From contig CAJFVQ010000068.1 in NCBI GenBank assembly GCA_904420535.1, positions 1 to 34,826 of the forward strand: DNA of 34,826 nucleotides, read 5' to 3'. Origin of the DNA: Candidatus Cryptoclostridium obscurum (GTDB lineage Bacteria > Bacillota > Dehalobacteriia > UBA7702). Shown here piece after piece: positions 33,156 to 34,826 of this stretch. The notes beneath the pieces were generated by a model. That model was not told the DNA's origin. It did no database searches and saw nothing but the letters and a program-made list of their open reading frames with translations. Every line of letters begins with the position of its first letter. Positions within the stretch are counted from its first letter, which is position 1. The translations under genes were made by a program, and so were the position numbers.

Positions 33156-33598
<443 letters not shown>

Positions 33599-33610: not shown

Positions 33611-33638
33611 TTTACAGAAAAGTGTACTTTTTTGCAAA
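33611..33638 (+). repeat. Left recombination-like site, core GT
   Basis: Two imperfect 13-base half-sites (33611-33623 and the complement of 33626-33638; 11 of 13 identical) surround the dinucleotide GT (33624-33625). This dyad with a 2-bp core is the architecture of serine-recombinase crossover sites. Bases 33618-33637 are repeated exactly, inverted, at 33748-33767. Confidence 0.6.
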
Positions 33639-33660
33639 CAAAAACCGCTCGGAGGCTCAT

Positions 33661-33696
33661 ATGCCAAAAAGCGAACAACTTTCTGAAAAAGTATAG
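33661..33696 (+). CDS. Possible 11-codon ORF between the inverted sites
   Basis: ATG 33661 to TAG 33694 encodes MPKSEQLSEKV and is preceded by GGAGG (33651-33655). It is too short to assign and may be the residue of a truncated gene or a translated leader. Listed because its ribosome site is good. Confidence 0.15.
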   Translation: MPKSEQLSEKV

Positions 33697-33738
33697 AAAT
33701 CGAAATAAACTTGTGTTATACTACTTTTGTATTAGAAT
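33694..33738 (+). promoter_or_regulatory. Promoter(s) inside the inverted-site segment, pointing to the surface protein
   Basis: Two overlapping candidates. First, TAGAAA (33694-33699), 17 bases, TATACT (33717-33722), with TG at -15/-14. Second, TTGTGT (33711-33716), 16 bases, TAGAAT (33733-33738). Both point rightward, so in the present orientation they would transcribe the leader at 33768-34104 and the surface-protein gene. Confidence 0.55.
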
Positions 33739-33746
33739 TTATCCTA

Positions 33747-33774
33747 CTTGCAAAAAAGTACACTTTTTTATAAG
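33747..33774 (+). repeat. Right recombination-like site, core AC (inverted copy)
   Basis: Half-sites 33747-33759 and the complement of 33762-33774 agree at 11 of 13 positions around core AC (33760-33761). The core is the complement of the left-site GT, so the two sites are in inverted orientation, with centres 136 bp apart. The central 20 bases are an exact inverted copy of the left site. Confidence 0.6.
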
Positions 33775-34104
33775 CAGTGCGGCAGGCAGAAACTGAGGTG
33801 TATAGGACGGGAAACTAAAAATTGCCTTTGTTGGACGAAAGCCGGCAAACGAAAGGCAAAAAGAGCGAGCCGACAAAGGGGATGAACCTTACGCTTGCTG
33901 GGCTGCATAGCGGAATGAAAGGGTGCGCATATCGGTTCAGTTTGCACAACCTGAATGCTGCACAGCAGGTGGCCGGAACGGCATGCCGGAGAATTTTTCT
34001 CATGCCTCGGCGCAGGCAACCTCACAGACTGCTCAGTGGCGGTTGCAGCCTATGGGATATTTTGCCCCTCAGGGCAGAAATTTAAAAACAAGGAGGAACA
34101 TTAC
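33775..34104 (+). promoter_or_regulatory. Long structured 5' leader of the surface-protein gene
   Basis: About 330 bases without a credible gene but with many complementary segments. CCTTTGTTGG (33825-33834) pairs with CCGACAAAGG (33870-33879), and competes with TTGCCTTT (33822-33829) pairing with AAAGGCAA (33852-33859). GGCATG (33980-33985) pairs with CATGCC (34001-34006) around AGAA/TTCT. GCAACC (34016-34021) pairs with GGTTGC (34041-34046). TGCCC (34063-34067) pairs with GGGCA (34072-34076), close to the ribosome site. The alternative pairing is switch-like. No known riboswitch class was recognised. Confidence 0.45.
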
Positions 34105-34826
34105 ATGAAACAACGATTACCAGCAACGCTATTATCGCTGCTCCTGGCCTTCACTTTGGTACTGGCCATGGGCACTGCGGTCACGGCGGAGGAAACGTGG
34201 ACAGAAGTTAATTCAGCAGATGCTTTGGCAACTGCGCTTCAGGAAGGCGGCAATATCAAGCTGACCGGAAATATTGACATTTCAGAAAGGCAGTCTTGGA
34301 CAGTTGGCAGCGGCGTCAACGTTGTGCTGGACTTGAACAATTTCACCATTTCCAGCAGTTGCGCTGTAAGTAACAACTACATTATTGTCGTAAATGGCGG
34401 TTCCCTGACCATTACGGACAACTCCACAGAAAAGGGAGGAAAAATTGAAGCAACAGACAAAAGCTATGGCTATGGTATCCAGTTGAGAGGCAACGGCAGT
34501 AGCTTCACTCTTTTAGCCGGGACGATCCAGACAACTCAGGAGACCGTGGATATTTATGACTCTGCCTCCAGTTGCTCCATCGATATTTCCGGCGGAAAGC
34601 TAGTCAGTACCGCTGATAATGTCCTTGGTGTCCGGGGAAGCGAAACCACTGTAGATATCACTGGCGGTGAAATGGAAAGTGCCGGTAGAACAGGCGTTTA
34701 TATCTCCAATTACGGCGAGCCGGACAGCATTATTTTCAACATGACCGGCGGCACGCTGACCCACACCGGAGGCCGCAGTGGCGCTATTCAGATGTACAAA
34801 GGCGCAACCCTCACCGTTGGCGGGAC
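34105..34826 (+). CDS. Secreted surface protein with beta-helix-like repeats, 3' partial
   Basis: Open frame from ATG 34105 to the window end (240 codons visible). AGGAGG (34091-34096) precedes the start. Residues 1 to about 29 are a signal peptide: basic MKQR, hydrophobic core LLSLLLAFTLVLAMG, cleavage probably after AVTA. The mature part is rich in Gly, Thr, Ser and Asn, with short repeating turns such as ISGGKLVS, ITGGEMES and MTGGTLTH, typical of right-handed parallel beta-helix surface proteins and adhesins of gut Clostridia. Codon and base use are more GC- and repeat-rich than in the his operon, which fits an accessory gene. The cell-wall anchor and function are outside the window. Confidence 0.8.
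   Translation, partial: MKQRLPATLLSLLLAFTLVLAMGTAVTAEETWTEVNSADALATALQEGGNIKLTGNIDISERQSWTVGSGVNVVLDLNNFTISSSCAVSNNYIIVVNGGSLTITDNSTEKGGKIEATDKSYGYGIQLRGNGSSFTLLAGTIQTTQETVDIYDSASSCSIDISGGKLVSTADNVLGVRGSETTVDITGGEMESAGRTGVYISNYGEPDSIIFNMTGGTLTHTGGRSGAIQMYKGATLTVGG

What the first reader, a model, noticed from the sequence alone, without database searches (positions are those of the whole stretch)
33611..33774. Candidate invertible promoter (phase switch) controlling a surface protein
Two 28-bp dyads, each with 13-base half-sites around a 2-bp core (GT on the left, AC on the right), lie in inverted orientation with centres 136 bp apart and share an exact 20-bp inverted repeat. Serine recombinases cut at such 2-bp cores. 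The segment between carries promoter elements pointing to a secreted beta-helix protein 330 bp away, and a serine-recombinase remnant lies immediately upstream. Inversion would turn the promoter away from the gene. Because the local recombinase is broken, the switch would be locked in the drawn (ON) orientation or driven in trans. Extra half-site-like sequences at 33680-33692 and 33723-33735 leave open that this is instead a resolvase res site.
Basis: partly seen in the sequence, partly recalled or inferred. Interest (0 to 1): 0.85.

Follow-up and report, generated by a model that had tools for sequence, protein, structure and literature searches.

The report
Decayed invertible promoter, probably locked on
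A short DNA segment in front of a secreted surface-protein gene is a DNA switch (an invertible promoter) of a kind common in gut Clostridia, but in this bacterium the enzyme gene that flips it is broken, so the switch is probably frozen in the ON position.

Summary
Two GTGTAC-centred dyads (33611-33638, 33747-33774) form an exact 20-bp inverted repeat, with centres 136 bp apart; 0 of 200 simulated windows had one as long. In gut Clostridia, intact small serine recombinases related to the local remnant carry the same dyad pair about 20 bp after their stop codon (53 of 93 loci against 10 of 3926 random positions). The segment is found in both orientations in two cases: between related species (L048 against L053/L056) and between two copies in one genome (L151/L165). 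Flanks stay colinear while the part between the cores is reverse-complemented. Core spacing follows helical turns, and the interior promoter sits about 45 bp from the downstream core. The window matches this geometry, with the promoter facing the secreted-protein gene. The res-site alternative is rejected. In the window the recombinase lacks its catalytic half, and no intact small recombinase or second site was found in the draft genome, so the switch is most likely locked ON. Inversion in this strain could not be tested. The kind is known. Related cassettes also precede restriction-modification and helicase defence genes, which is the more interesting part.

The parts
33300..33598 (+). Remnant of a small serine recombinase: the first ~97-100 codons (catalytic Ser and active-site Arg region) are missing, and what is left is split over three frames by a ~30-bp deletion and a frameshift
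   Evidence: tblastn of intact relative L047: residues 98-148, 151-194 and 182-206 in three pieces, 64-75% identity; aligned; about 65-72% DNA identity over ~350 bp to most relatives
33611..33638 (+). Left recombination dyad, 13-bp half-sites, core GT at 33624-33625
   Evidence: matches the family consensus TTTACAGAAATGT-GT-ACTTTTCTGTAAA
33747..33774 (-). Right recombination dyad, inverted, core AC at 33760-33761
33625..33760 (+). Segment between the cores, predicted to be invertible (29.6% GC over 33612-33773)
   Evidence: homologous segments inverted between the cores in relatives; GC
33694..33722 (+). Promoter: TAGAAA, 17 bp, extended -10 TGtTATACT; -10 starts 45 bp before the right core centre (the family mode); predicted start near 33729
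33775..34104 (+). Long 5' leader, no Rfam match, not unusually folded, no terminator-like site
34105..34826 (+). Predicted target: secreted protein with signal peptide, probably a right-handed beta-helix; cut by the contig end at 34826
   Evidence: low-confidence model (pLDDT 63) whose weak fold matches are mostly beta-helices such as pectate lyases and the L. reuteri SRRP adhesin

Best explanation
The region is a decayed copy of a two-part cassette: a small serine recombinase gene followed about 20 bp later by a ~136-bp promoter segment between two inverted crossover sites. When intact, recombinase dimers bind the two 13-bp half-sites of each dyad and cut at the 2-bp core (GT / AC, so only inverted alignment gives matched joints). 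They flip the segment and so turn the outward promoter towards or away from the next gene. Here the promoter faces right, towards the secreted surface protein (ON). The recombinase has lost its catalytic part and no substitute was found in the genome, so the switch is most likely locked ON. Shown: the sites, their family-wide link to the recombinase, inversion of homologous segments between genomes and between copies, and the decay of the local recombinase. Inferred: recombinase action on these sites, promoter activity, control of the surface gene, and locking.
For: Dyad pair within 300 bp of the recombinase stop in 53/93 relatives against 10/3926 random positions and 7/4650 shuffles. Cores GT/AC in 53 of 55 pairs, AT/AT in 2, window included. 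L048 against L053/L056: 82-83% colinear flanks over 1.47 kb, while the segment between the cores is inverted at 86-88%. Two copies in one genome (L151, L165) in opposite orientation: recombinase side 85% colinear, segment inverted at 84%. Spacings cluster at 113-118, 127-128, 134-140 and 147-148, i.e. whole helical turns. The -10 lies 44-46 bp from the downstream core in 39 of 55; window 45, facing right. Own genome: one Resolvase-family hit only, in a 535-aa frame; no intact relative of the small recombinase; no other full dyad. Relatives' next genes include SLH, LRR and VWA surface proteins.
Against: No reads or second isolate were available, so neither orientation switching nor locking is shown in this strain. 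The gene starts 330 bp past the right dyad, against mostly 11-120 bp in relatives, so its control by this promoter is less certain. The genome is a 101-contig draft, and a recombinase on a missing piece or plasmid cannot be excluded. Promoter calls are consensus matches.
Confidence: 0.8

Rival explanations
1. The switch still works because a recombinase elsewhere in the cell acts on these sites in trans.
For: One relative element (L160, in the genome of L126) has no recombinase within about 1.5 kb while that genome carries one elsewhere. Both dyads of the window are still nearly perfect although the recombinase is decayed.
Against: The 99%-complete draft has one Resolvase-family hit, in a 535-aa frame, and no intact relative of the small recombinase.
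Confidence: 0.12
2. It is the res site of a Tn3- or Sin-type resolvase, not an invertible promoter.
For: The nearest solved relative of the recombinase family is Sin, a resolvase. A half-site-like sequence lies at 33680-33692.
Against: The two sites are inverted, with inverted cores, in nearly all relatives. Homologous segments are found inverted. Interior half-sites are not conserved in position, while a promoter at fixed distance is.
Confidence: 0.02
3. A dead relic: the segment is a leftover of a cassette that served another gene, and the secreted protein has its own promoter in the 330-bp leader.
For: Unusually long distance to the gene; the leader has no match in the relatives' loci; the recombinase is decayed.
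Against: The promoter keeps the family geometry and faces the gene; no terminator-like site and no other + strand promoter match in between.
Confidence: 0.15

Closest known systems
Invertible promoters (invertons) of gut bacteria, as profiled in PMC11892184 and Jiang et al. 2019 (the latter known here only as a cited reference)
   Same: Short promoter segment between inverted repeats next to surface genes, often with a recombinase nearby
   Different: In the passages read of PMC11892184 the invertase families tied to inverton groups are tyrosine-type or site-specific integrases; here it is a small serine recombinase at a fixed ~20 bp distance, and the local one is broken
Master DNA invertase Mpi of Bacteroides fragilis (PRK13413)
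   Same: Small serine recombinase flipping promoters of surface genes (own knowledge)
   Different: The intact relatives score far below the Mpi cut-off (51 and 48 against 272 bits); here one recombinase lies next to its segment rather than a master enzyme serving many (own knowledge)
Hin, Gin and Sin small serine recombinases
   Same: Same catalytic family, 2-bp core, paired half-sites
   Different: Sin is a resolvase on direct sites; Hin and Gin flip larger segments with an enhancer (own knowledge); here the segment is ~136 bp and no enhancer was identified
Clostridioides difficile flagellar and cwpV switches (RecV; PMC7446863, PMC5903667)
   Same: Short invertible segment upstream of surface or flagellar genes in a Clostridium; loss of recV gives phase-locked strains
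   Different: RecV is a tyrosine recombinase (own knowledge) and the sites are unrelated

Membership tests
Small serine recombinase-linked invertible promoter (gut Clostridia type) | Inverted pair of dyads with 2-bp core after the recombinase stop | tested here: met
   Left dyad 19 bp after the remnant stop, spacing 136, cores GT/AC, as in the relatives
Small serine recombinase-linked invertible promoter (gut Clostridia type) | Outward promoter at fixed distance from the downstream core | tested here: met
   -10 at 45 bp; family 44-46 in 39/55
Small serine recombinase-linked invertible promoter (gut Clostridia type) | Intact small serine recombinase | tested here: not met
   Remnant lacks the catalytic half and is frameshifted: a decayed member at most
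Small serine recombinase-linked invertible promoter (gut Clostridia type) | Both orientations occur | tested here: inconclusive
   Met for relatives; not testable for this strain, no reads and one genome of the genus
Tn3/Sin-type res site | Directly repeated crossover sites with conserved accessory subsites | tested here: not met
   Sites inverted, interior half-sites not conserved
Mpi family (PRK13413) | Recombinase above the curated cut-off | tested here: not met
   Intact relatives L047 and L053: 51 and 48 bits against 272

The most novel reading that the evidence does not exclude
The recombinase plus ~113-148-bp promoter segment is a modular cassette that moves between genomes and is placed in front of very different genes, including DNA methyltransferases, PLD-SNF2 helicase defence operons and surface proteins. 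It would make phage defence phase-variable in gut Clostridia. The window shows such a cassette being domesticated: acquired horizontally, flipper lost, promoter fixed ON.
Probability: 0.5. Interest if true: 0.68.

Novelty: new member of a known kind. Interest (0 to 1): 0.5.

Why it matters
For the window: it is a plain example of a phase switch frozen by loss of its recombinase, with comparative evidence that the sites are inversion sites. For the family: the same serine recombinase, about 20 bp from its own invertible promoter, precedes restriction-modification or helicase genes in 12 of the 50 loci with a downstream gene examined (several of the 12 are related to each other). This makes a concrete test possible of why recombinases sit next to defence genes, whose role PMC12529663 calls unknown. 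The fixed geometry (whole helical turns, -10 at about 45 bp) gives a search rule for such switches in assemblies without reads.

Tried and rejected
Family, order and class searches for the segment or leader found nothing of note beyond the own genome. The gap-limited patterns used too short a gap and say nothing; one search repeats the search with the right gap (0 of 398 other genomes), but that strict pattern catches only 15 of 54 known loci. Leader as a structured RNA: no Rfam match, folding z -0.92. Pfam and NCBIfam on the surface protein: nothing. DNA search in plasmids and phages: no match. Most viral-contig matches to the bare site motif are single sites, not pairs, and were not followed. 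Res-site reading rejected (see rivals). Literature searches found no description of this GTGTAC family, but most subscription papers are not in the library.

Full report
Observation. The window ends at a contig end (34826 bases) inside a secreted-protein gene. Upstream of it lie two dyads, 33611-33638 and 33747-33774, in inverted orientation, with centres 136 bp apart and cores GT and AC. The exact 20-bp inverted repeat is longer than any in 200 simulated windows (maximum 16), and the motif AAAAGTRYACTTTT occurs nowhere else in the draft genome. A looser 26-base pattern finds these two sites with 0-1 mismatches, and only chance-level matches elsewhere (23 in all against 24 for the reversed control).

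Remnant. An intact relative (L047) matches 33304-33589 in three pieces in three frames, residues 98-148, 151-194 and 182-206, at 64-75% identity. The N-terminal half with the catalytic serine is gone, and the rest carries a deletion of about 30 bp and a frameshift. The only Resolvase-family match in the genome at E 0.001 lies in a 535-aa frame on contig C13, larger than the small recombinase type.

Relatives. One scan of genome contigs gave 80 loci encoding close relatives, nearly all from gut Clostridia by their record titles; viral contigs gave 23. In 53 of 93 loci with enough sequence, a dyad pair of the same type lies within 300 bp of the recombinase stop, against 10 of 3926 random positions in the same loci and 7 of 4650 shuffled stretches. 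The left 14-base site usually starts 14-22 bp after the stop; in the window it is 19. Cores are GT/AC in 53 of 55 pairs, the window included, and AT/AT in two.

Inversion. L048 (Acetatifactor MAG), L053 (Merdimonas faecis) and L056 (Mediterraneibacter glycyrrhizinilyticus) share the same recombinase, segment and downstream helicase gene. Over 1.47 kb L048 aligns colinearly with the other two at 82-83%, except that the ~129 bp between its cores is the reverse complement of theirs (112 and 114 identical of 130 when flipped, against 83 of 149 and 84 of 150 unflipped). In the genome of L073, two copies of the cassette (L151, L165) are 85% colinear on the recombinase side and inverted at 84% between the dyads. 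This is direct comparative evidence that segments of this family invert at the cores.

Geometry. After removing obvious relatives, 41 spacings fall in clusters 113-118, 127-128, 134-140 and 147-148. The periodicity is strongest near 11 bp and high at 10.5 (R about 0.70-0.72; no smoothed-null draw of 20000 reached it). The best promoter in each segment has its -10 44-46 bp before the downstream core in 39 of 55 segments, against 2 of 55 for the weaker strand. The window's promoter is at 45 bp and points right. With the position fixed, 42 segments point left (away from the downstream gene), 11 right and 2 are undecided. So the left state predominates in assemblies and the window shows the minority, ON, state. 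These promoter calls rest on a simple consensus score.

Targets. Genes after the right dyad in relatives include cytosine methyltransferases (L051, L061, L109), MmeI- or Eco57I-like methyltransferases (L052, L054, L055, L065, L079, L120), a PLD-SNF2 helicase of candidate defence type (L048, L053, L056), and secreted LRR, SLH and VWA proteins. The assignment of L054, L065 and L079 rests on N-terminal similarity to L052 and on the tally. The window's own target has a signal peptide and a repeat pattern; a low-confidence model (pLDDT 63) has only weak fold matches (E 0.05 or worse), mostly to right-handed beta-helices including an L. reuteri adhesin. It has no paralogue in the genome.

Origin. 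The segment was not found in 3 family members or, with a strict pattern, in 398 other genomes of the phylum, while relatives abound in gut Clostridia. The remnant is 58% GC and the segment 30%, against 46% for the window. Horizontal acquisition is the likely reading, but the strict pattern is insensitive (15 of 54).

Judgement. The thing works like, and descends from, a serine-recombinase invertible promoter. It fails one defining feature of an active member, the intact recombinase, so it is filed as a decayed member. Whether the segment still flips, and whether it drives the gene 330 bp away, are open.

Noticed in passing
L048, L051, L052, L053, L054, L055, L056, L061, L065, L079, L109, L120, downstream of the right dyad: The same recombinase-promoter cassette precedes methyltransferase or PLD-SNF2 helicase genes in 12 loci, suggesting phase-variable phage defence.
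   Followed up: partly
L151 and L165 (one genome): Two copies of the cassette in opposite orientation, one before a predicted lipoprotein gene (promoter towards it), one before a predicted membrane protein gene (promoter away).
   Followed up: partly
L160: A dyad pair with a right-facing promoter but no recombinase within about 1.5 kb; another recombinase copy (L126) lies elsewhere in that genome, so action in trans is possible.
   Followed up: partly
segments of 55 loci: Promoters point left, into the 3' end of the recombinase gene, in 42 and right in 11; an antisense effect on the recombinase in the left state is conceivable.
   Followed up: no
L036, L117: Dyads with palindromic AT/AT cores, which would not fix the direction of recombination.
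   Followed up: no
window 33662-33697: A short reading frame with a good ribosome site (MPKSEQLSEKV) lies inside the segment; not examined in the relatives.
   Followed up: no
window 33252-33285: Strong terminator-like hairpin after the his operon; the remnant begins right after it.
   Followed up: no
window 33775-34104; L142: The 330-nt leader is unique apart from a 37-nt match (86%) in one other genome of the class (G008).
   Followed up: no
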